Source: Gemmatimonadota bacterium (GTDB taxonomy: Bacteria > Gemmatimonadota > Gemmatimonadetes > Longimicrobiales > Gaopeijiaceae). From it: DNA of 64,000 nt. The translations under genes and the position numbers were made by a program. The notes beneath the pieces were generated by a model, which ran no database searches, had not been told where the DNA came from, and worked only from the letters and a program-made list of their open reading frames with translations. Positions 24,186-36,325 of the stretch are shown here, piece after piece; position 1 is the first letter of the stretch, and every line of letters starts with the position of its first letter. The DNA lies in NCBI GenBank assembly GCA_003248075.1, contig QJYK01000128.1, forward strand, positions 1 to 64,000. The letters run 5' to 3'.

Positions 24186-24632
24186 TCAGCGGTCGGCCAG
24201 ACGGGCTCGAGCGGAATCGACTGCGTCGAGCCGCTCGGGAAGCTCTCGCTCCACCCAGTCCCGGAAGCGATCGTCTCGGACGATCAGGACTACGTCGTCA
24301 GCGGTCAGCTCGATGGCGGCGCGACGGCCACCCCTGCATCGTATCTGCAGGGTGGTCGGCGTGTAGATCCCGCCCGTGAGCCCGGCAACCAGCCCGTTCA
24401 GGAAGGTCTGCTTCGCTACGATGGTCGCGTCGCCCGACGGACACGCGCGCGCGATGTCTATCCGCGTATGCCCGATCAGGCCACCGATCCAGAAGTTCTC
24501 CCAGTGGTCCTCGACGACCGGCCCCCGAGGCGCACCGGCACCCACCGTGACGGTGTGCTCGTAGCAGCCGCCGAGCGTCGCGGCGAGCAGGAACACCGCC
24601 ACCCCTCTTCCACCCGTCTGCATCGCCCTCAT
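24186..24632 (-). CDS. Bor/Iss-like small lipoprotein
   Basis: A 148-residue protein from ATG 24632, which has GGAGG 5 bp upstream (the track start at 24683 is less likely). The lipobox is LGGC. The region HWENFWIGGLIGHTRIDIAR, then KQTFLNGLVAGLTGGIYTPT ending in IRC, matches the lambda Bor / Iss family pattern (FVSG..., QTFVNGL, GIYTP, C). Bor proteins are outer-membrane lipoproteins linked in phage lysogens to serum resistance. Here it has a longer C-terminal helix and sits with another lipoprotein, not with phage genes. The precise role is unknown. Confidence 0.72.
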   Translation of the reverse strand: MRAMQTGGRGVAVFLLAATLGGCYEHTVTVGAGAPRGPVVEDHWENFWIGGLIGHTRIDIARACPSGDATIVAKQTFLNGLVAGLTGGIYTPTTLQIRCRGGRRAAIELTADDVVLIVRDDRFRDWVERELPERLDAVDSARARLADR

Positions 24633-24657
24633 GTCATCCTCCCCCTGTCGGTTGTGA

Positions 24658-25350
24658 TCAATACCTGGTGACCGTGGAGCCACCGGAGACGTCCGCCCTG
24701 ATCTCCGGCCAGCCGATGTAACGCACGCGAGACGCGCCGCTCACCGAGCCCCGCAAGACGTCGGACACCCGGACGTCCACCAGCGAGGCCCCGGAGACCT
24801 CGGCCCGGACCTCGTAGCTGTCGAGGTCGAACGCGTCGTAACGACTGGCGCCGGAGACGAAGACATCCTGCTCGTCGGCATCGCCCCAGGGAGTGACGCG
24901 GGAAGCTCCGCTGACCGTCACCCACAAGGTCGGGACGTGGCCGACCTCCAGGTCCACGGAGCTGGCCCTGGACGCGTCCAGCTCGAGCACCTCGTAACTC
25001 CTCACGCGGTAGAAGATCTCGCGGCGCGGCGCCAGGCTCACGCCGTCCGCGACGCCGAGATGGAGGACCCCGCCGCGGACCTCCATCTCCAAGTAGTCGA
25101 GGAGATTGTCTTCGGCGGTGAGCTCGACATGCTCGTCCCCGGTTCGCTCCACGAGGACCGAGACCGGTCCCCGAACGGCGATGGCGTCATAGGGCGGAAG
25201 GTGCCGCGCCACCGACGCCAGGTGCCCCGACCCTCTCACATGTGCCACGTCGATGTCGATATCGACGGGGAGCACGCATCCCCCCATCGCCAGCGTCACC
25301 GCCACGGCGGCGGCCATGCTCGGACGTCGTCCCATCTTTCCCCTCCTCAT
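24658..25350 (-). CDS. DUF2807 (head GIN domain) lipoprotein
   Basis: A 230-residue exported protein with lipobox MGGC after a short signal peptide. Residues about 50-225 form the DUF2807 beta-helix: FYRVRSYEVLELDASRASS-type strands, with the motif VSGAS recurring four times (WVTVSGASRV, VFVSGASRY, AEVSGASL, GSVSGASRV) and once as VSGGS. These proteins, called putative auto-transporter adhesins, have no firmly known function; several cluster with anti-sigma or envelope-stress genes. The Bor-like gene follows 25 bp downstream on the same strand. Confidence 0.88.
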   Translation of the reverse strand: MRRGKMGRRPSMAAAVAVTLAMGGCVLPVDIDIDVAHVRGSGHLASVARHLPPYDAIAVRGPVSVLVERTGDEHVELTAEDNLLDYLEMEVRGGVLHLGVADGVSLAPRREIFYRVRSYEVLELDASRASSVDLEVGHVPTLWVTVSGASRVTPWGDADEQDVFVSGASRYDAFDLDSYEVRAEVSGASLVDVRVSDVLRGSVSGASRVRYIGWPEIRADVSGGSTVTRY

Positions 25351-25883
25351 CGCCCCGGCTTCATCCCGGTTTCCGCTTCCAGCCCGGTCGCCAACCGGAT
25401 AGGCACCCTCTGTGCCGCCTCGATGTGACGTTCTAAGTCATTGTGGTGAATGTACTTGAGAGATACGGTGGGCAGAGCCCTCGTCTTCCGACGTCCCAGT
25501 CCAAAGACACCGGCCGATGTGCGAAAGACACGTTCAGGCGGTCGTCCTGCTCGGGGGACTTGCGCCGCGCGCCCAGCCGCCGCATCCATGGAGTGACCGA
25601 CGCCTCGTGCGCCGCGAGCCATCCCAGCAGACGGGAAGACGGACGATCCCATGGCCCTCGGTCGAGGGCGCGCGTTGGATGACGCGGCACGGGCCGATCG
25701 GGGCGGATCGCGCGCCGGAGCCGACCGGCGCCCCCGGCGTGAGCCGGAAGATCCGAGCCGCGCAATTCGGCGCCGACCCGGGAGGATTTGATGCCACCCG
25801 GCCAGTGAAAAGCCCGGAGTCGCCTCACGGCGCTCCGGGCTTTCGACATCGCGGTGGGTCGGTGGCGGGCCGCCCCCGGGACT
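25351..25883. other. Gene-free interval with one terminator
   Basis: About 530 bases between DUF2807 and the end of the Tad operon. Several ORFs cross it on both strands, but none shows domain features or a ribosome site I can support. A relatively A/T-rich patch near 25430-25475 may hold the promoter for the minus-strand DUF2807 gene. The only clear element is the hairpin at 25809-25843. Confidence 0.5.
25809..25843 (-). terminator. Rho-independent terminator of the Tad operon
   Basis: AAAGCCCGGAG (25809-25819) pairs perfectly with CTCCGGGCTTT (25833-25843). The stem is extended by CGCC/GGCG with one bulge. It is flanked by an A-run on the left and T's on the right, so it works in both directions. 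It lies 41 bp past the stop of the last Tad-operon gene. Confidence 0.85.
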
Positions 25884-26573
25884 TCAGCGCCCCTGACTCC
25901 CGTCATCCTGGCGGGCGGACTCGCCTCGATCGTCCACGTCGATCGTGTTGATCTCGGGCTGGCCCGACGCGTCGACCCCCACGGCCGTCCGCGTCTGCCC
26001 GCTGGCGTCACTGAAGAGCATGCGTGCTGCGCCATCCGGGGTCAGCGTGAACACCCCGCGCGCCACGGACCCCCGATCCGCCAGGACCAGCGTCGTGGTT
26101 CCGTCCGAGAGGAGTCCCAGGATGGCACGGGTCTCGCCCTCGTTGTCCAGCAGCGTCAACCCGGGAGATCCATCCGACAGCACCGACAGCTTCAAGCGGA
26201 CGCGACCGTTGATATCCGTGAGCGCGAAGGCAGCACCGCCGTCCTCGCCGACTCCGAGGCTGGCGCGCTCCACGCCATCGGTGTCCTTGAGCACGAAGGA
26301 GGCGGCCTGGAGGCTCGGAGCCACGGTTCCGACACGGTAGGCTCCCGCGGTGCGGGTAGAAACGAGCAGGACCGTGATCAGGGCGACCGCGCCGAAGATC
26401 ACACCGAGCCATCGGGCCGCCCCATGTCGCGAGCTCGCGCTCTCGATGGCATCCATGCGCCGCTCGAGCGCCGCGCGCGCTTCGCGCATGCGGTACTCCA
26501 TGTCGGTGACGGTGTCGTTCAGGTCCGTGGAGCTCGAAGTGGATTCGGGCTTTGCCGATGCGCGCGTCTTCAT
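25884..26573 (-). CDS. Membrane-anchored protein with five 23-residue repeats, last gene of Tad operon
   Basis: Not recognised as a named family. The 229 residues divide into a Ser/Thr-rich start, a charged probable coiled coil (about 24-46, EYRMREARAALERRMDAIES), one transmembrane helix (about 54-72), and then five consecutive units of exactly 23 residues (93-207). Unit pattern: hydrophobic-x-L-x-D-x-x-G-x-x-R-x-x-L-x-x-x-x-D-G, for example LTLLDNEGETRAILGLLSDG. The regular period suggests a beta-solenoid or stacked beta-hairpins outside the membrane. A short acidic tail ends the protein. It begins 15 bp after tadC and ahead of the operon terminator, so it is probably part of, or attached to, the pilus machinery. 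Confidence 0.7.
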   Translation of the reverse strand: MKTRASAKPESTSSSTDLNDTVTDMEYRMREARAALERRMDAIESASSRHGAARWLGVIFGAVALITVLLVSTRTAGAYRVGTVAPSLQAASFVLKDTDGVERASLGVGEDGGAAFALTDINGRVRLKLSVLSDGSPGLTLLDNEGETRAILGLLSDGTTTLVLADRGSVARGVFTLTPDGAARMLFSDASGQTRTAVGVDASGQPEINTIDVDDRGESARQDDGSQGR

Positions 26574-26588
26574 GGGATCAACGACTCG

Positions 26589-27518
26589 CTAGAGGCTCAA
26601 CAACTGTTCGACGACCTGGATCACCGCAGGGGTGAGGATCACGACGAACAGCGCGGGGAAGATGAAGAGGACCAGCGGGAAGACGAGCTTGATCGTCGTC
26701 TTCGCGGCGGCCTCCTCGGCGGCCTGTCTGCGCTTGGTTCGGAGCGCGTCGACGTGCACGCGCAGGGATTGGGCGATCGACGTCCCGAATCGGTCCGACT
26801 GCGCAAGCATGTTCACGAGGGAACGCATGTCCTCGAGCTCGCTGCGCTCACCGAGCTTGGTGAGCGCCTCCGCGCGGGCTGTCCCCGCCCGGATCTCGAG
26901 GTTGACCATCGACAGCTCGGTGCTCATCACGGGGCTCATGTGCCGCACCTCGTCTGCGACCCGGACCAGCGCCTGGTTCAGCCCCATGCCCGCCTCGACA
27001 CACGCCACCAGCAGGTCGAGCGTATCGGGCAGCGCAAGCTGCACCTCTCGCCACCTCTTCTTCTTGCGTGCCGAGATGTGCCACTGGGGCGCGATCCAAC
27101 CGAGTGCGGCGAGCCAGGACGCGAAGAACAGGAGCGCCGCGATGCGGCCGCCCAGGGCGCCACCGACCAGGAAAACGCCGCCGCCCAGGACAGCGGCGAG
27201 CGCCACTCGGGCCGCCAGGTAGTAGCGCACCGCGTCCGGGTCCCAGTACCCCGCCTGCACCAGCCGCTTGCGCACGCCCTCGAGGTCCGCCTGTCCCTCC
27301 TCGATCCGCTCGCCGATTTCCCTGAGAGCCTTCTGGAGGCGGGTCCGCTGATCGCGGCGACGGCGCCGTTGGCCTGCCTCGAACGGTCGCGAGCCGATCT
27401 CGCGCAGGGTCGCAACCTCCTTGCTGACGACGCGGGAAGGTGCCGTCCACAGCTGGAGGAATCCCGTCAGTACCAAGGTCACCGAAAGACCCGCGAGCAA
27501 CGCCACGAGATAGGGCAC
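26589..27518 (-). CDS. tadC: Tad pilus inner-membrane platform protein TadC
   Basis: A 309-residue type II secretion F-domain protein. Hydrophobic helices lie at about 3-22, 100-145 and 275-305. The cytoplasmic F domain lies between them: LPDTLDLLVACVEAGMGLNQ, then MSTELSMVNLEIRAGTARAEAL and SDRFGTSIAQSLRVHVDALR. TadC partners TadB to form the platform that couples the TadA ATPase to Flp pilin assembly. Two base pairs separate it from tadB. A Gly/Ala-rich second helix is typical. Confidence 0.92.
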   Translation of the reverse strand: MPYLVALLAGLSVTLVLTGFLQLWTAPSRVVSKEVATLREIGSRPFEAGQRRRRRDQRTRLQKALREIGERIEEGQADLEGVRKRLVQAGYWDPDAVRYYLAARVALAAVLGGGVFLVGGALGGRIAALLFFASWLAALGWIAPQWHISARKKKRWREVQLALPDTLDLLVACVEAGMGLNQALVRVADEVRHMSPVMSTELSMVNLEIRAGTARAEALTKLGERSELEDMRSLVNMLAQSDRFGTSIAQSLRVHVDALRTKRRQAAEEAAAKTTIKLVFPLVLFIFPALFVVILTPAVIQVVEQLLSL

Positions 27519-27520
27519 GA

Positions 27521-28492
27521 TCAGTACTCCACGTTCACGATCTTACGGATCCACAGGAACCCGATGAACTGGAGAAAAGCGGCGAAGCCCAGGAGCGCCT
27601 TGCCGATGGGGTGCTCGAAGAGGACGCTCATGTAGTCGCTGTTGAGAAGGTAGATGAAGGACCCCACCACGATGGGGAGAGCCGCCAGGATGTACCCGCT
27701 CATGCGGCCCTGAACGGTATAGACGCGCACCTGCCGTCGGATGGTGAAGCGGGCTCGCATCGTCGCCCCGACCTTCTCGAGGATCTCTGCCAGGTTGCCT
27801 CCCACCTCGCGCTGGACCAGGATCGCCGTGATGAGGATGCGAATGTCGGGCAGGTTGATTCGGTCCCCGAGACCGAGAAGCGCGTCCTCGAAGGGGAGAC
27901 CGAACCGTTGCTCCTCGAACACGGCCCGGAACTCGGAGGCGATGGGCTCGGGAGACTCCTCTGCCAGCATCTTGAGTCCCGCCGACAGGGGATGCCCAGC
28001 CCGAACCGCCCGGTTCAGATGGTCGATGGCGCCCGGCAGCTGTGCCTCCAGGGCGCGGATCCGCTTCTTCGCCTTGCGTTGCACCCAGAAGCGGGGTAGC
28101 CAGGCGCCGAAGAAGAGGCCGACCACGGCGAACACGGGCGAGTGGGTGAACAGCCAGCAGGGCACGCCCAACGAGAGAGCCCAGAGGGTGGTGTAGAGGA
28201 CGAAGCGCTCGATCGTCCACGTGAGCGCCGCCTGGGCCATCAGGTCCTCGACGTCCCCGAAATGCGGCAGTCGGTTGAAGATCCGCTGCAGGGGCCGTTC
28301 CACGTCGTTGGGCCGCAACACCTGCGGGACGTTGGTCTCGACACGCAGCGTCTCGAGATCGCGGAGGGCCTCCGCCACGGAGCGCCGGCTCCGCCAATCA
28401 CGGACGACGCCGACGCCCGCCGAAACCGAGACCGCCGCCAGCGACGCGGCCATCGCCGCGAACAAGACGAACAGAGTGGGGTCGAGTGACAT
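27521..28492 (-). CDS. tadB: Tad pilus inner-membrane platform protein TadB
   Basis: A 323-residue T2SF-domain protein. N-terminal and central hydrophobic helices (about 5-25, 95-130) precede the F domain: LPGAIDHLNRAVRAGHPLSAG, then FGLPFEDALLGLGDRINLPD and REVGGNLAEILEKVGATMRAR. Two C-terminal helices end the protein. It forms the assembly platform with TadC. It lies between tadA (7 bp gap) and tadC (2 bp gap) in the operon. Confidence 0.92.
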   Translation of the reverse strand: MSLDPTLFVLFAAMAASLAAVSVSAGVGVVRDWRSRRSVAEALRDLETLRVETNVPQVLRPNDVERPLQRIFNRLPHFGDVEDLMAQAALTWTIERFVLYTTLWALSLGVPCWLFTHSPVFAVVGLFFGAWLPRFWVQRKAKKRIRALEAQLPGAIDHLNRAVRAGHPLSAGLKMLAEESPEPIASEFRAVFEEQRFGLPFEDALLGLGDRINLPDIRILITAILVQREVGGNLAEILEKVGATMRARFTIRRQVRVYTVQGRMSGYILAALPIVVGSFIYLLNSDYMSVLFEHPIGKALLGFAAFLQFIGFLWIRKIVNVEY

Positions 28493-28499
28493 GGCCGTC

Positions 28500-29897
28500 T
28501 CAGGCCGTCGCGGCGTGCAGATCGCTGAACATGCTGGCCGGCAGCTGGAAGCCGTTGGCCTTCAGCTTGTCCGCCACACGAGGACGGATACCCGAGGGGC
28601 GGATGCGACCCAGGATGTTCCCGTTCTCGTCCACGCCCTCCTGCTCGAACTTGAAGATGTCCTGCATTGTGATGACGTCGCCCTCCATCCCCACCACCTC
28701 GGACAGGTGCGTCAGCCGACGGCGGCCGTCGGAGAAGCGCGAGAGCTGCAACACGATGTGGATCGCGCTCGCGATCTGCTGCCTCACCGCCCGGTCGGGA
28801 AGATTGAGGTTCGCCATCGCGACCATCGTCTCGAGGCGGTTGAGACTGTCTCGAGGGGTGTTGGCGTGCAGCGTGGTCAGGGAGCCGTCGTGGCCGGTAT
28901 TCATGGCCTGTAGCATGTCGATCGCTTCGGCGCCACGGACCTCACCCACCACGATGCGGTCGGGCCGCATGCGCAATGCGTTGATCACGAGCTGTCTCTG
29001 GCCGACGGCACCCTGGCCCTCCACGTTCGCCGTGCGCGTCTCCAGCCGGACGACCCGGGGCTGACGCAGCTGGAGCTCCGCCGAGTCCTCGATCGTGATG
29101 ATGCGCTCGGTGGGCGGAATGAAGCCCGACAGGACATTCAGGAGCGTGGTCTTTCCGGCTCCGGTTCCTCCGGCGATGAGCACGTTCAGCCGAGATCTCA
29201 CGACCCCCTCGAGGAGCTCGACCATCGGCTTGGTCATCGTGCCCATGTCCACCAGGTCGCCCGCCGTGAGCACGTCGTCCTTGAACTTCCGGATCGACAG
29301 GTGCGGCCCGTCGATGGACAGGGGTGGAATGACGGCGTTGACACGGGATCCGTCGGGAAGGCGCGCGTCGACCATCGGAGAGGAGTCGTCGATGCGTCGC
29401 CCCACACCCGACACGATCCGGTCGATGACCTGCAGGAGGTGCCTGTCGTCTTGGAAACGGACGTCGGTGTCGTACAGCTTCCCCTCACGCTCCACGATCA
29501 CGCGGCTGTAGGTATCGACCAGGATGTCGGAGATCGAAGGGTCCTCCATGAGCGGCTGGAGCGGCCCGAGTCCGAAGATCTCGTCGAGGACCTGCGAGAT
29601 GAGCAGGTCACGCTCGCCGACATTGAGCGGGATCGACTCCTGCTCCAGCAGGTCGCGCACCACGTTCGCGATGACCCTGTTTACCTCGGTCCGATCCAGC
29701 CGGTCGAGGTTCGAGAGGTTCAGACGCTCGAGAAGAAGGCGGTGGATCCGGGCCTTCACATCCTGGAGCGGGTTTTCCGGGCTGCGGCGGGTCCGGGAGG
29801 GCGGCTTGGGCGACGTGCGCTTCGCGGCCGCGTCGCCCTCGTCGCCGGAGGCTTCGCCGGACTCTGGAGTGTGGATCTTGACGCGCCACTCAGGCAT
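28500..29897 (-). CDS. tadA: Tad pilus assembly/secretion ATPase TadA (CpaF)
   Basis: A 465-residue type II/IV secretion hexameric ATPase that powers Flp pilus extension. Walker A is [24 protein letters not shown] is the Asp/Glu box, [20 protein letters not shown] the Walker B region, and [18 protein letters not shown] the His box. The N-terminal 50 residues are charged and variable. The ATG at 29897 overlaps the tadZ stop by 8 bp; the longer track ORF (to 29975) would intrude on tadZ. Confidence 0.95.
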
Positions 29898-31191
29898 GGT
29901 TGAGCGCCTCCCGAGTCGCCGCCCGGGCGCCGTTCGTGGAGCGGGTGCCGAAGAGGCGTCCGAACACCAGCCCACGCCGAGGACGAACCTGTTGCTCTCG
30001 CCCGGCGATCCTCGCGGCGAGGTTCTTGATCTCCTGCGCGTAACGCGCGTTGCTCTGGAGCACGAGCGGACGGCCTGTGCTCAGGGACTCGATGACGGTG
30101 TGGAAGTCGTTGGTGAGCGTGCCGAAGACCGGCAGGCCCACCGTGTTCTCGAGGTCGTCGAGCGAGACCAGCGCATTCTTCGCGTACCGATTCACGATCA
30201 ACCGGATCCGCTCACCTTTCTCGCCGGTGATGTCCTTGAAGATCGGCATGCAGCGCTTGAAGTTGCGCAGGGAGCACAGATCCAGGTTGGTGACCAGGAA
30301 GAGCTCGTCGGCGGGGCGCATGGCCGCGAGGGCGGGCGGCGCCAGCGACTTCGACGTGTCGATCACCACGTAGTCGTACTGCCTGCGCAGGAAGGACACC
30401 ACCGACGTGATCTCGTCCGCGGAAACGCTCTGACCGATCTCCGGCTCGAAGGGCGCGGACAGAACGTGGACGCCGGACTCGTGACGTTCGATGTAGGAGG
30501 TGAGCAGATCCTCGTCCATCCGGTGGAAGTTCTTGAGCAGGTCCACCAGGTGGAAGCGCGGCTTCAGCCCCATGAACGAGGCGATCTCTCCGAGCTCGAG
30601 GTCCAGATCGACCAGAAGCGTCTTCTTATTGGTGAGCCGGTGCAGCTCGATGCCCACGTTCATCGCGACCGTGGAGCAGCCGGTCCCACCCTTGGGGCTG
30701 AAGAAGGTCAGGACCCGACCGACGTGACGCCGTACGGTGCCCTCGACGCCGACGCCCAGCTTGCGCAGCACCCGCTCGAGGGACTCGGAGATCTCCTCTT
30801 GGCCCCCCGAGTCGGGCACGACCTCCGAGATCCCCGCCCTCATGGCCTCGAGGAGCTGGGGCTGTGAGAGCTCCGGGCCGGACACGACGATGCCGAGACC
30901 CGGATGGGCTCTGGACAGGGTGCCGGCCAGGCGAATGCCGTCCTCGGGCGTGTCACCGAGGGCCATGAACAGGATCTGCGGATCGTACTCCTTGAGCGGG
31001 GTCACAGGCTCTCGGAGCAGGGCGTCGGGTGTGGCGTCGGTCTCGAGCCCCACCTCGACGCGTCCCTCGGTCGCATCGACCGCTTCGTGGACGGCGGCGC
31101 GGAAGGTCTCATCGGCGGCGATCAGCGCCGCACGCACGATCTCCTGCTTGGCATTGCTCTTCATCCTGTCAGCCTCTCTGGGGGAGCTCAT
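29890..31191 (-). CDS. tadZ: Tad pilus localisation protein TadZ/CpaE (ParA/MinD-like)
   Basis: A 433-residue protein. It has an N-terminal receiver-like domain (about 15-130; [36 protein letters not shown]) followed by a MinD/ParA ATPase domain. The P-loop is [20 protein letters not shown], a deviant Walker A with the signature lysine; [16 protein letters not shown] and [17 protein letters not shown] follow. TadZ marks the polar or focal site of pilus assembly. It overlaps the TadG-like gene by 4 bp and tadA by 8 bp. An alternative in-frame start (MKSNAK) lies 9 codons in. Confidence 0.92.
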
Positions 31192-32816
31192 CGAATGAGC
31201 CTGAGCCTCTTGACCAGGGACCCCGTGCGAGTCCCGTTGTTGGACGCGGCCCCGGTGGCCGCGACGTAGTACATGAAGCGTCCCATGACCGGGTCCTGCG
31301 GTGATTCCTGCGCCTCGATGAAGAATCGGGCGAAGTTGTTGAACTGGATGTATTGGCGACCGCCCTTCCGGACCTCGGTGGGGTCGAAGAGGGCCACCGT
31401 GATGATGCGGGGGCTGTCGTCGCCGAAGTCGCTCACCACGCGATTGTCGCCCTCGTCCCAGTAGGCGTCGGGATCCTGGTCGATCAAGGCGGAGACACCC
31501 TGGTACGTGGGTCCGACCATGTTGCCGGGCTCGATGAGGTACTCGGTCTCCAGGTCGATAACCGAGGCGTTGCAGCTGCAGATGTTGCGACGATAGGCGG
31601 CTCCACCCCGGCCCTTGCCGCCCTCCTTGCCGCCAAGAGCATCGTCGTTGTTGCCGTTTCCGTTACCCTTGCCGTTACCCTTGCCGTTGCCACCGGCATT
31701 GCCGTTCCCGTTGCCACCGGCATTGCCGTTCCCGTTCCCGGGATCTGTGGTGCCGGCGTCGCCGCCCCCGGTTCCCCCCTTGCCGTTGCCGTTGCCACCG
31801 GCATTGCCGTTCCCGTTGCCACCGGTGTTGCCGTTCCCGTTGCCGTTGCCCGGGTCGGTGTTGCCGTTGCCGTTCCCGTTGCCGTTGCCGGGATCGGTGT
31901 TGCCGTTGCCGTTCCCGTTGCCGTTGCCGTTGCCTGGGTCGGTGTTGCCGTTCCCGTTCCCGTTCCCGTTGCCCTTGCCGTTCCCTTTCCCTTTCCCTTT
32001 GCCCTTGCCGTCGTCGGGAAGCAAGTCGTTGCCGGCGCGGTCCTCTCCGCAGTCGGGCTGGCCGGAGTCGACGGGCAGCACCCACGGATAGAAGAAGGAA
32101 GGCACGAAGGCATCGTGGGGGTCCGTCGCCTTGATCATGATCCGGCGACCGTAGTCACGCCCGTACCGATTGCCGTCGACGTCCGAGAACGCGTTTCGCC
32201 AACCGCTTCCGTAGCCGGTCTCGGTGCTGCTGCCATCGGCGCCGGTGTAGCCCTCGTACCGGTCACGACCGGGGTCGAAGTCCCACGACTCCCCGTCGTC
32301 CCAGATCCGGTTGTTATTGGTGTCGTCGTTGGTTTCGTCCCACATGTCCGGGACCGCGAACGGCTTCAGACATTGCGCCGTGCCCGCATCCACGGCCTGC
32401 GCCGTCGCCTGGGCGCCGATCGGGACGTCCTCGCGGCCCAGGATCCGCGCGAACCAGGTGGGAACGCCTTCGCGCCGCACCTGGACCGTGACCGCCGCGC
32501 TGTCGACGTTCACGTGGATCGTCACCTCGGACCCGGTGATGCTCTCCTTTCGGATCCTGTTCTGGATGGCGTACTCCATCGCCCGCTCGCGGGCGGGCTT
32601 GGTCGCCTCCTCGGCCGGGTAGTCAAGGAAAGCGCTCGCCCCCGCCAAAGCCGACGAGTCCGCTGCCCGCTGGGCCTCGCTGCGAGCGTTGAAGAGCATG
32701 CCTACGTCGATCCCGAGGGCCAGGAGCGACACCAGCGCCGTCAGGCTGACGGCCACCAGTGCGACGGCGGATCCCCGCCTGCCGGACCCGGAGCTTCTCG
32801 GTTGCCGTCGCATCAT
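31188..32816 (-). CDS. TadG-like Flp pilus-assembly protein with Gly-Asn repeat
   Basis: A 542-residue protein from ATG 32816 (the track start overlaps further upstream). The N-terminus GSAVALVAVSLTALVSLLAL and DVGMLFNARSEAQRAADSSA is the TadG/TadE-like pseudopilin helix domain. Residues about 100-260 form an extracytoplasmic domain with acidic patches (WDETNDDTNNNRIWDDGESW). Residues about 268-390 are a Gly-Asn/Gly-Lys low-complexity tract with spaced TDPGNG units. A final about 140 residues contain CSCNASVIDLE and end near the stop. TadG proteins sit in the envelope and help Flp export; the Gly-Asn insert is unusual. Confidence 0.85.
   Translation of the reverse strand: MMRRQPRSSGSGRRGSAVALVAVSLTALVSLLALGIDVGMLFNARSEAQRAADSSALAGASAFLDYPAEEATKPARERAMEYAIQNRIRKESITGSEVTIHVNVDSAAVTVQVRREGVPTWFARILGREDVPIGAQATAQAVDAGTAQCLKPFAVPDMWDETNDDTNNNRIWDDGESWDFDPGRDRYEGYTGADGSSTETGYGSGWRNAFSDVDGNRYGRDYGRRIMIKATDPHDAFVPSFFYPWVLPVDSGQPDCGEDRAGNDLLPDDGKGKGKGKGNGKGNGNGNGNGNTDPGNGNGNGNGNGNTDPGNGNGNGNGNTDPGNGNGNGNTGGNGNGNAGGNGNGKGGTGGGDAGTTDPGNGNGNAGGNGNGNAGGNGKGNGKGNGNGNNDDALGGKEGGKGRGGAAYRRNICSCNASVIDLETEYLIEPGNMVGPTYQGVSALIDQDPDAYWDEGDNRVVSDFGDDSPRIITVALFDPTEVRKGGRQYIQFNNFARFFIEAQESPQDPVMGRFMYYVAATGAASNNGTRTGSLVKRLRLIR
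31651..32010. repeat. Short tandem repeats inside the TadG-like gene
   Basis: About 360 bp of imperfect tandem hexamers and longer units (plus-strand words such as GTTGCCGTTCCC recur), encoding alternating Gly-Asn. The length could change by slippage or recombination without breaking the frame when whole 6-bp units are gained or lost. Confidence 0.85.
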
Positions 32817-34199: not shown

Positions 34200-35042
34200 T
34201 CAGTTGCCCTTGTTGTTGAACTTGATGAGCGTGCGCGTGCCGCCCTTGTAGCTCTCGATGACGGTCGGCTCCGGCACCACCGCGGCGGGGGCACCGGACG
34301 AGGTCGTCGAAGCGCGCTTGACCGGCCCGCCGCCGACGAGCGTCTCGATGCGCATCCCGTTCGTGGTGACCGAGTCGACGTCGAGCGTGTTTCGCAGGGC
34401 GAGCTGGATCCTGCCTTCGGTGGAGGCCAGCGTGAGCGCCTCGGCTTCGATCGGCTCCACCAGGAGGGTGACCACCGTGACCAACTCCGGCTCGCCGGTT
34501 GGGTCTTCCTGGTAGGACTGGTCCGCCGTCAGCACGAGGATGTTCTGGAGGATGATCCTCGTCGTGGTCTCGGAGCGGTTCGTATTCGGCATGACCGTGG
34601 CGAGGACGTCGACGCGGGTGCGGGGAAGCACGAAACCGGCGACTCCGACGACCTCGTCGACCTCGACGCTGACCGCGCGCTTGCCTTCGGGGATCACGAT
34701 AGGGAGCCCACCCCCGGCCTCCTTGTCGGCGAGCCGGGAGGCCAGCATCGGCTCGTTACGACGGGCTCCGAAGAGCACGCCGCGGCCGATGACCTCTCCC
34801 GGTTGCGTGTAGAAGCCCTCCGGAATGTTCCTGGAGGGCCATTCGATGACCTCGAGGTCTTCGCGGGTGAGGATGTGTCCCGGTGGCAGGTCGCGGCTCG
34901 CGACCACCACTTGGGCGCCGCTGGGCTCCGCGGCCATGAGACTGGAGGGCTCCTCGCTCACGTAGACGAGCGCCAGGTATCCGGCCAGGATGCCGGAGCC
35001 CAGGGCTCCTGTGAGCGTGATCCAGACGCGTGTGTTCTTCAT
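34200..35042 (-). CDS. cpaB: Flp pilus assembly protein CpaB/RcpC (SAF domain)
   Basis: A 280-residue periplasmic protein with one N-terminal transmembrane anchor (ITLTGALGSGILAGYLALVY). The SAF/antifreeze-like domain follows (VVVASRDLPPGHILTREDLE, EVIGRGVLFGARRNEPML). The RcpC middle segment reads GKRAVSVEVDEVVGVAGFVL and RVDVLATVMP. It works with the RcpA secretin and may contact peptidoglycan. It is located directly before rcpA in the operon, as in other Tad loci. Confidence 0.92.
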   Translation of the reverse strand: MKNTRVWITLTGALGSGILAGYLALVYVSEEPSSLMAAEPSGAQVVVASRDLPPGHILTREDLEVIEWPSRNIPEGFYTQPGEVIGRGVLFGARRNEPMLASRLADKEAGGGLPIVIPEGKRAVSVEVDEVVGVAGFVLPRTRVDVLATVMPNTNRSETTTRIILQNILVLTADQSYQEDPTGEPELVTVVTLLVEPIEAEALTLASTEGRIQLALRNTLDVDSVTTNGMRIETLVGGGPVKRASTTSSGAPAAVVPEPTVIESYKGGTRTLIKFNNKGN

Positions 35043-35062: not shown

Positions 35063-35503
35063 CTACTCGTTGCGCATGATGAACCCGGTGTGGAGCGTCA
35101 CCGAACGCCTGCCGGCGGCCATCTCCATCAACGGTCCGAGGATGTCGAAGTCGTAGCGATAGCTGAGCTCGATCCGGGCGGGGTTACCGGTTCCGGTCCG
35201 CCAGCCCTCGAACGAGATGCTCGCCCGAGTCGGATCCAGGGAGGCCAAGCGCAGGAGCTCGTTGATGCGCGACTGCATGGCCTCCTGGGTGAACGTCGGG
35301 TCGTCGACCACCGCGGCGCGCAGCGCTTCGCGCGCCGTGTTCGTGATCACCTGATGTGCATTCCACGCGCGCGACAGCTCGACGACGCCCACGATCAGGA
35401 TCAGCAGCAGCGGCACGACCAGGGCGAACTCGACCAGAGCCTGGCCCGAGCGGTCCCGGTGCGAGCGGAGCGCCGCCGAGATCGGGGCGTGGTCGCGCGT
35501 CAT
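35063..35503 (-). CDS. tadE: TadE-like minor pseudopilin
   Basis: 146 residues from ATG 35503, which shares one base with the tadV stop (TGATG). The motif SGQALVEFALVVPLLLILIV has the Flp-type G|x4-E-F processing site followed by the hydrophobic helix, the hallmark of TadE pseudopilins processed by TadV. The remainder is a small soluble domain without cysteines. It is needed for Flp pilus biogenesis in characterised systems. Confidence 0.9.
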   Translation of the reverse strand: MTRDHAPISAALRSHRDRSGQALVEFALVVPLLLILIVGVVELSRAWNAHQVITNTAREALRAAVVDDPTFTQEAMQSRINELLRLASLDPTRASISFEGWRTGTGNPARIELSYRYDFDILGPLMEMAAGRRSVTLHTGFIMRNE

Positions 35504-36012
35504 CACGCCGCGGCGCCCATCACGACGCAAGCGAGCGTCGTGCCGGCGGCGATCGCCGGTGCGAAGGGCACCGTGACCGCGGCGCCAGGAGCGAGCCGCC
35601 TGCGCTCTCCCCCGCGCCCCAGCGTGACACACCAGAGAAGCAGATTCTTCGTGTGCAGCAGAGCGGGAATGATGACTCCGCTCCGCCACGAGACGATGCC
35701 CGACATGATCCCCCCCGTGATCGCCGTGGCGAGTAGTGCGATCGGGAGCCCCTCGATTCCGAGGAACGCGCCGACCGCGATGAGCAGCTTTCCATCACCG
35801 GCGCCGAGAGCGCCGATCGCGAACAGTGGGATGGCCACGGCCATTCCCAGCCCTGCTCCCTGAAGCCCCTGCGTCGCCAGCGCCGGGTCCGTGACCAGGC
35901 GCAGCACGAGAGCGGCGATCAGCCCGCCGACCGCGAGGGCATTGGGGATGCGTCGCTCCCGGAGGTCGTAGACCACCGCGAGCGAAAGCACGAGAGCGAG
36001 GACGGTATCCAT
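35503..36012 (-). CDS. tadV: Prepilin peptidase TadV/CpaA
   Basis: A 169-residue integral-membrane aspartic protease of the A24 family, processing Flp prepilin and TadE/TadG-like proteins. The two catalytic Asp motifs are VYDLRERRIPN (about residue 13-23) and GAGDGKLLIAVGAFLG. Several hydrophobic helices follow. ATG 36012 gives the compact CpaA form; the longer track ORF adds residues from the non-coding gap. A terminator hairpin separates it from flp. Confidence 0.92.
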   Translation of the reverse strand: MDTVLALVLSLAVVYDLRERRIPNALAVGGLIAALVLRLVTDPALATQGLQGAGLGMAVAIPLFAIGALGAGDGKLLIAVGAFLGIEGLPIALLATAITGGIMSGIVSWRSGVIIPALLHTKNLLLWCVTLGRGGERRRLAPGAAVTVPFAPAIAAGTTLACVVMGAAA

Positions 36013-36127: not shown

Positions 36128-36325
36128 TCAGCTACCGGGTGTGTAGCCCCCCTCAGGGGCGCCGTCCAGCACCTCGACGATCCGGTCGAACACGCGACCG
36201 ATGGCGTCACGGAACAGCACCAGCACCGCGATCAGGCCGATCGAGATGAGAGCCAGGACGAGGGCGTACTCCGTCAGGCCCTGTCCGGACTCGTCGTTCC
36301 AGAAGCGCTTCATGAGGTCCTTCAT
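36128..36325 (-). CDS. flp: Flp-type pilin (major pilus subunit)
   Basis: 65 residues from ATG 36325, with GGAGG 8 bp upstream. The short leader MKDLMKRFWNDESG is cut after Gly14. The mature protein starts QGLTEYALVLALISIGLIAV, with Glu at +5 and the Tyr next to it, the Flp consensus. The rest is a short Gly/Pro-containing tail. The ORF track's longer version (to 36610) is upstream non-coding sequence. It is the first gene of the Tad operon and is followed by the UUCG terminator. Confidence 0.93.
   Translation of the reverse strand: MKDLMKRFWNDESGQGLTEYALVLALISIGLIAVLVLFRDAIGRVFDRIVEVLDGAPEGGYTPGS

What the first reader, a model, noticed from the sequence alone, without database searches (positions are those of the whole stretch)
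25884..26573. Five exact 23-residue repeats in an unknown protein ending the Tad operon
Residues 93-207 split without gaps into five units of the form hydrophobic-x-L-x-D-x-x-G-x-x-R-x-x-L-x4-DG. They sit behind a coiled coil and one transmembrane helix, in the tad operon before its terminator. No Tad component of this kind is known to me.
Basis: partly seen in the sequence, partly recalled or inferred. Interest (0 to 1): 0.62.

Follow-up and report, generated by a model that had tools for sequence, protein, structure and literature searches.

The report
Undescribed accessory protein of Tad pili
In one bacterial phylum, many gene clusters for the Tad pilus (a sticky surface hair) carry an undescribed membrane protein whose outer part is predicted to be a flat ladder of five 23-residue hairpins; it is inherited with the pilus genes, so it is probably an accessory part of the pilus machine.

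Summary
The minus-strand ORF 25884-26573 (229 aa) follows tadC by 15 bp, ends in a strong terminator hairpin, and has five gap-free 23-residue units at residues 93-207 (0 of 2000 shuffles as periodic). "Exact" holds for length, not sequence. No Pfam, NCBIfam or PHROGs family matches.

Close homologues form a tight set: 28 loci in 24 genomes of the same phylum. In all of them the gene directly upstream is tadC, DUF192 or a winged-helix-type AAA ATPase of the tad operon, on the same strand. Tad genes share the contig in 26 of 28; the other two contigs end inside that ATPase gene. Much weaker relatives lie outside tad loci, so the repeat module is older and more widespread than this clade. Many tad loci lack the protein, so it is accessory.

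AlphaFold2 (repeats mostly pLDDT 85-97) predicts a single-layer antiparallel sheet of hairpins, closest to OspA's central sheet and MORN repeats. Topology: cytoplasmic coiled coil, one membrane helix, periplasmic sheet with one apolar face.

Best reading: an inner-membrane scaffold that docks a periplasmic partner onto the TadBC platform. The tad link is shown; partner and effect are inferred. New accessory variant of a known machine, built from a known kind of fold.

The parts
25884..26573 (-). Repeat-protein ORF (229 aa): cytoplasmic coiled coil, one membrane helix, five 23-aa beta-hairpin units, polar tail
   Evidence: ORF; purifying selection; homologues
25953..26297 (-). Five 23-residue units (residues 93-207), predicted single-layer antiparallel beta-sheet
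   Evidence: Periodicity; AlphaFold2 repeats mostly pLDDT 85-97; Foldseek to OspA central sheet and MORN1
26355..26411 (-). Membrane helix, residues 55-73 (signal anchor, N-terminus inside by positive charge in the family)
   Evidence: Hydropathy and K/R counts on both sides in 25 family members
26430..26522 (-). N-terminal helix, residues 18-48, coiled-coil-like, cytoplasmic
   Evidence: AlphaFold2; LE..N.RL heptads in orthologues
25808..25844 (-). Terminator hairpin 39 bp after the stop codon, followed by UUUU
   Evidence: Fold z = -5.1
26589..27518 (-). TadC, immediately upstream (15 bp gap)
   Evidence: Pfam T2SSF; neighbours
27521..28492 (-). TadB
   Evidence: Pfam T2SSF
28500..29897 (-). 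TadA/CpaF ATPase
   Evidence: Pfam T2SSE; TIGR03819 E 1.6e-100 (below its own cut-off)
29890..31164 (-). TadZ/CpaE
   Evidence: Pfam AAA_31; MinD/CpaE models
31188..32756 (-). TadG
   Evidence: Pfam Tad PF13400
32863..34197 (-). RcpA/CpaC secretin
   Evidence: Position in the operon and match to the same gene in other tad loci; not scanned against Pfam
34200..35042 (-). RcpC/CpaB alignment-complex protein
   Evidence: Used to build the RcpC profile; identified from operon position and homologous loci, not scanned against Pfam
35063..35503 (-). TadE-like
   Evidence: Operon position and homologues; not scanned against Pfam
35503..36012 (-). TadV prepilin peptidase
   Evidence: Operon position and homologues; not scanned against Pfam
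36128..36325 (-). Flp pilin
   Evidence: Operon position and homologues; not scanned against Pfam

Best explanation
The protein is an accessory inner-membrane scaffold of the Tad pilus machine. SHOWN: it is co-inherited with tad operons, next to or just behind tadC. PREDICTED with good support: the N-terminus with its coiled coil is in the cytoplasm, one helix crosses the inner membrane, and the five repeats form a rigid single-layer sheet of beta-hairpins in the periplasm. INFERRED: the coiled coil self-associates and docks on the TadABC platform or, where present, on the neighbouring AAA ATPase. The apolar face of the periplasmic sheet, or its edge strands, hold a partner at the base of the pilus (a TadE/TadG minor pilin, RcpC or a second copy of itself), so that assembly is positioned or primed. 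Related bacteria have tad loci without it, so it would tune assembly rather than power it.
For: Linkage: 28 of 28 close homologues sit directly behind AAA (23), tadC (4) or DUF192 (1), on the same strand, often overlapping by 4 bp. Genomes with two tad loci (G000, G001, G041, G368) have a copy in each. In the triples tested for G000, G041 and G368 the copies group by locus and not by genome, as TadC does. Co-occurrence: 18 of 20 genomes with a strong match also have RcpC, against 59 of the other 375; Fisher p = 4e-12, not corrected for relatedness. It persists where no AAA gene is found in the whole genome assembly (G081, G266), so it follows tad, not the ATPase. Inside some operons it lies between TadC and TadE (L023) or between the AAA gene and TadE (L027). 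Fold: model; Foldseek E 7e-8 to OspA variants. Conserved unit-specific sequence: same-index units 0.42-0.47 identical, different units 0.24-0.38, as expected of fixed interfaces rather than a neutral spacer. Unit positions 1, 3, 14 and 16 are large apolar residues in 90-100% of units, giving one apolar face. Open hairpin sheets of this kind elsewhere bind partners: MORN dimers (PMC7725318), CPAP-TCP holding STIL (PMC3776556).
Against: No experiment. Many tad loci, some in the same order, lack it. Gene linkage alone cannot separate pilus function from the function of the DUF192/AAA module. RcpC already supplies the alignment complex (PMC12307814), so no empty slot is obvious. AlphaFold2 was run on the monomer only; oligomer and partner were not modelled.
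Confidence: 0.6

Rival explanations
1. It is the membrane-bound partner of the DUF192/AAA module. The AAA ATPase acts on its cytoplasmic coiled coil and the sheet senses or handles something in the periplasm; the pilus link is indirect, through a shared regulon.
For: In 23 of 28 loci the AAA gene is directly upstream, often with 4 bp overlap, which suggests translational coupling.
Against: The protein stays next to tad genes in genomes with no detectable AAA gene (G081, G266), and in four loci it directly follows tadC. Several tad loci have AAA, with or without DUF192, but no repeat protein (L088, L089, L094, L096, L098).
Confidence: 0.2
2. It is a generic envelope protein that happens to ride at the end of tad operons and works independently of the pilus.
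For: Weak relatives with a similar coiled coil, membrane helix and hairpin-repeat plan lie next to unrelated genes (L031, L078-L083); a remote repeat relative lies beside heavy-metal genes on a plasmid of Ca. Manganitrophus.
Against: The close set has no member found outside a tad context, and copies follow their own locus in genomes with two tad loci.
Confidence: 0.12
3. It is a surface or pilus-borne adhesin whose repeats reach outside the cell.
For: The sheet resembles OspA, a surface lipoprotein. Tad pili of Myxococcus carry adaptable tips (title of PMC12075869).
Against: No lipobox (no cysteine in any of the 25 members examined), no prepilin-peptidase motif before the helix, and a long charged cytoplasmic N-terminus.
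Confidence: 0.06

Closest known systems
Central single-layer beta-sheet of Borrelia OspA (wild type and engineered variants)
   Same: Predicted fold: repeated hairpins in one antiparallel layer; best Foldseek match, E 7e-8.
   Different: No sequence match. OspA is a lipoprotein with globular ends (own knowledge); this protein has a membrane helix and an N-terminal coiled coil. Conserved apolar residues here point to one buried face.
MORN repeats
   Same: Hairpin repeats in an elongated twisted sheet; Foldseek E about 1e-3 to MORN1. MORN1 forms dimers through the sheet (PMC7725318).
   Different: No MORN Pfam hit; the YEGEW motif is absent, replaced by L-x-D-x-x-G-x-x-R-x-x-L.
CPAP/SAS-4 TCP domain
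   Same: Open sheet of hairpins behind coiled coils, binding a partner along its edge (PMC3776556); weak Foldseek hit 4by2.
   Different: Eukaryotic centriole protein; no sequence relation shown.
RcpC/CpaB, TadE/TadF/TadG and TadD of known Tad systems (PMC12307814)
   Same: Membrane or envelope components of the same machine.
   Different: No similarity found; RcpC, TadE and TadG are already present as separate genes here. No Tad protein of this architecture was found in the papers searched.

Membership tests
Tad system accessory component | Encoded in tad operons across genomes | tested here: met
   28 of 28 close homologues in a tad operon context; 26 with tad genes on the same contig
Tad system accessory component | Needed for, or affecting, piliation | not testable with these tools
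   Needs genetics
Tad core component | Present in all tad loci | tested here: not met
   Tad loci without it: L086, L089, L094, L096, L101 and others
Minor pilin (TadE/TadF/TadG) | Prepilin-peptidase motif (G, then E at +5, then the helix) or TadE/Tad Pfam | tested here: not met
   No Pfam hit; a simple motif pattern is absent in all 25 members examined
MORN repeat family | MORN profile match | tested here: not met
   Zero Pfam families at E up to 1
MORN repeat family | Hairpin repeats in one elongated sheet | tested here: met
   Predicted model and Foldseek
OspA family lipoprotein | Lipobox cysteine and OspA profile | tested here: not met
   No cysteine in 25 members; no Pfam hit
YD/Rhs repeats | RHS repeat profile | tested here: not met
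   No Pfam hit; only remote Foldseek similarity

The most novel reading that the evidence does not exclude
A previously undescribed inner-membrane subunit of a Tad pilus variant: a membrane-anchored single-layer hairpin sheet in the periplasm that captures a pilin or minor pilin, or gates the platform, together with a DUF192/AAA-ATPase module also undescribed for Tad in the papers searched. This would make the Tad machine of this phylum a distinct sub-type.
Probability: 0.4. Interest if true: 0.6.

Novelty: new variant of a known kind. Interest (0 to 1): 0.46.

Why it matters
How Tad pili are started, positioned and tuned is still poorly known; the alignment complex was identified only in 2025 (PMC12307814). 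A protein that follows the tad genes through one phylum but is absent from other Tad loci is a concrete, deletable candidate for a tuning part. It would also be an open, single-layer hairpin sheet used as a periplasmic scaffold, a role not described in the papers read here.

Tried and rejected
Pfam, NCBIfam, PHROGs and PDB sequence searches gave no family; the weak hits (GTA head protein E 0.12, DevR E 0.02, Dad2 and prefoldin) are read as chance or coiled-coil similarity. Centring a genome search on other phyla was not possible, so occurrence outside this phylum is open except for remote plasmid relatives. Minor pilin, lipoprotein, MORN, OspA and YD membership were considered and rejected. 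A neutral-spacer reading was considered less likely because units are conserved by position; yet one locus (L024) has cleanly lost a whole unit, so the length is not absolutely fixed. The tree with non-tad relatives does not settle whether the tad group is one clade (18% of bootstrap trees with one change, long branches).

Full report
OBSERVATION. The ORF lies on the minus strand at 25884-26573 and encodes 229 residues. Residues 93-207 fall into five units of exactly 23 residues without gaps. Self-comparison peaks at offsets 23 and 46 and no shuffle of 2000 reaches the observed score. The units are not identical in sequence, and units 4 and 5 depart from the motif at one position each. The gene begins 15 bp after tadC, the last of a full tad operon (Flp, TadV, TadE, RcpC, RcpA, TadG, TadZ, TadA, TadB, TadC), and ends before a hairpin at 25808-25844 whose folding energy lies 5.1 standard deviations below shuffles. 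Against its nearest relative (61% identical over 208 codons) dN/dS is about 0.26, with dS near saturation, so it is a maintained protein.

RELATIVES. No Pfam, NCBIfam or PHROGs family and no PDB sequence matches. In 98 relatives, 14 genomes had matches; a profile from 14 members found matches in 41 of 395 genomes of the phylum. The scores of the profile search fall into two groups: E 5e-49 or better, and E 8e-28 or worse. The threshold between them was set after seeing this gap. The strong group, with the strong loci, comprises 28 loci in 24 genomes.

CONTEXT. In all 28 the gene directly upstream, on the same strand, is an AAA ATPase with a winged-helix-like N-terminus (23 loci; the winged helix is my reading of the sequence, not a profile match), tadC (4) or DUF192 (1). 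Tad genes share the contig in 26; in L020 and L070 the short contig ends inside the AAA gene. The gaps are small, often an overlap of 4 bp. Four genomes carry two tad loci and a copy in each. In the triples tested for three of them (G000, G041, G368) copies group by locus and not by genome, as TadC does; over 24 loci the distances of this protein and of TadC correlate with r = 0.75 (part of this is shared descent). The weaker relatives with similar architecture sit among unrelated genes. So a widespread repeat module has a tad-linked group in this phylum; whether that group is a single clade is not settled.

ACCESSORY, NOT CORE. An RcpC profile matches 77 of 395 genomes. Of the 20 genomes in that search with a strong match to the repeat protein, 18 are among them, and the other two (G197, G360) are contig-end cases with tadC/tadA or AAA beside the gene. 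The Fisher p of 4e-12 treats related genomes as independent and is therefore too small. Reading tad loci without the protein confirmed its absence behind tadC or AAA in several. It persists where no AAA gene is found in the assembly (G081, G266), while several loci with AAA lack it. It therefore follows the tad genes and not simply the ATPase.

STRUCTURE. With the alignment, AlphaFold2 gives pLDDT mostly 85-97 over the repeats: eleven strands, after a helix 18-48 and a membrane helix. The best solved matches are OspA variants (E 7e-8), then MORN proteins at about 1e-3, which is why the sheet is read as a single antiparallel layer; viral-library matches include many MORN proteins. Across the family basic residues before the membrane helix outnumber those after it (roughly 4 against 1), giving N-inside topology and a periplasmic sheet. 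Positions 1, 3, 14 and 16 of the unit are large apolar residues in 90-100% of units, forming one apolar face that should be buried by curling, by self-association or by a partner. Units of the same index are more alike between proteins than units of different index (0.42-0.47 against 0.24-0.38), which suggests fixed interfaces. One locus (L024) has lost exactly one unit.

MECHANISM. The best-supported reading is an inner-membrane scaffold of the Tad machine: the cytoplasmic coiled coil docks on the TadABC platform (or on AAA) and the periplasmic sheet holds a partner at the base of the pilus. The tad link is shown, topology and fold are predicted, partner and effect are inferred. Similar open sheets elsewhere serve as binding scaffolds (PMC7725318; PMC3776556). 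RcpC already fills the alignment role (PMC12307814). The main rival, a partner of the AAA module, is weakened but not excluded.

NOVELTY. No described Tad component of this kind was found in the papers searched; the library holds open-licence papers only. The machine is known and the fold is of a known sort; the combination, as a lineage-restricted accessory of the Tad system, is new as far as these tools show. The phylum could not be named from the anonymous genomes.

Noticed in passing
L018:10094-11897, L022:8599-9876, L025:10476-12463 and many other loci: A module of DUF192 plus an AAA ATPase with a winged-helix-like N-terminus (AAA below Pfam cut-offs) sits behind tadC in most tad loci of this phylum that were read, also in loci without the repeat protein. 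Its role in Tad is not described in the papers searched.
   Followed up: partly
L024:6587-8919 (G041, single-contig genome): A tad locus with no tadA between tadZ and tadB and no tadV found by tblastn; the genome's second tad locus (L025) has tadA. The two systems may share one ATPase and one prepilin peptidase.
   Followed up: partly
L018:8896-9465, L025:9158-9745, L028:8947-9468, L064:8612-9172: A further undescribed membrane protein directly behind the repeat protein in one sub-group of tad loci; no Pfam hit for the L018 copy.
   Followed up: partly
window 31188-32756: TadG with a long Gly/Asn-rich low-complexity stretch (GNGNGNGKG...) in its middle.
   Followed up: no
L102:3527-6463 (G218): A 978-aa ORF in a divergent tad locus matches TadA over its N-terminal part only; possibly a fusion of TadA with other tad genes.
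   Followed up: no
window 24186-25350: DUF2807 putative adhesin next to a Bor-like lipoprotein, just downstream of the tad terminator.
   Followed up: no
L094:7899-9485 and L096:11806-13470: In two tad loci without the repeat protein, another unknown large protein (528-554 aa) with a charged helical stretch and membrane segments lies behind the AAA gene; possibly a substitute.
   Followed up: no
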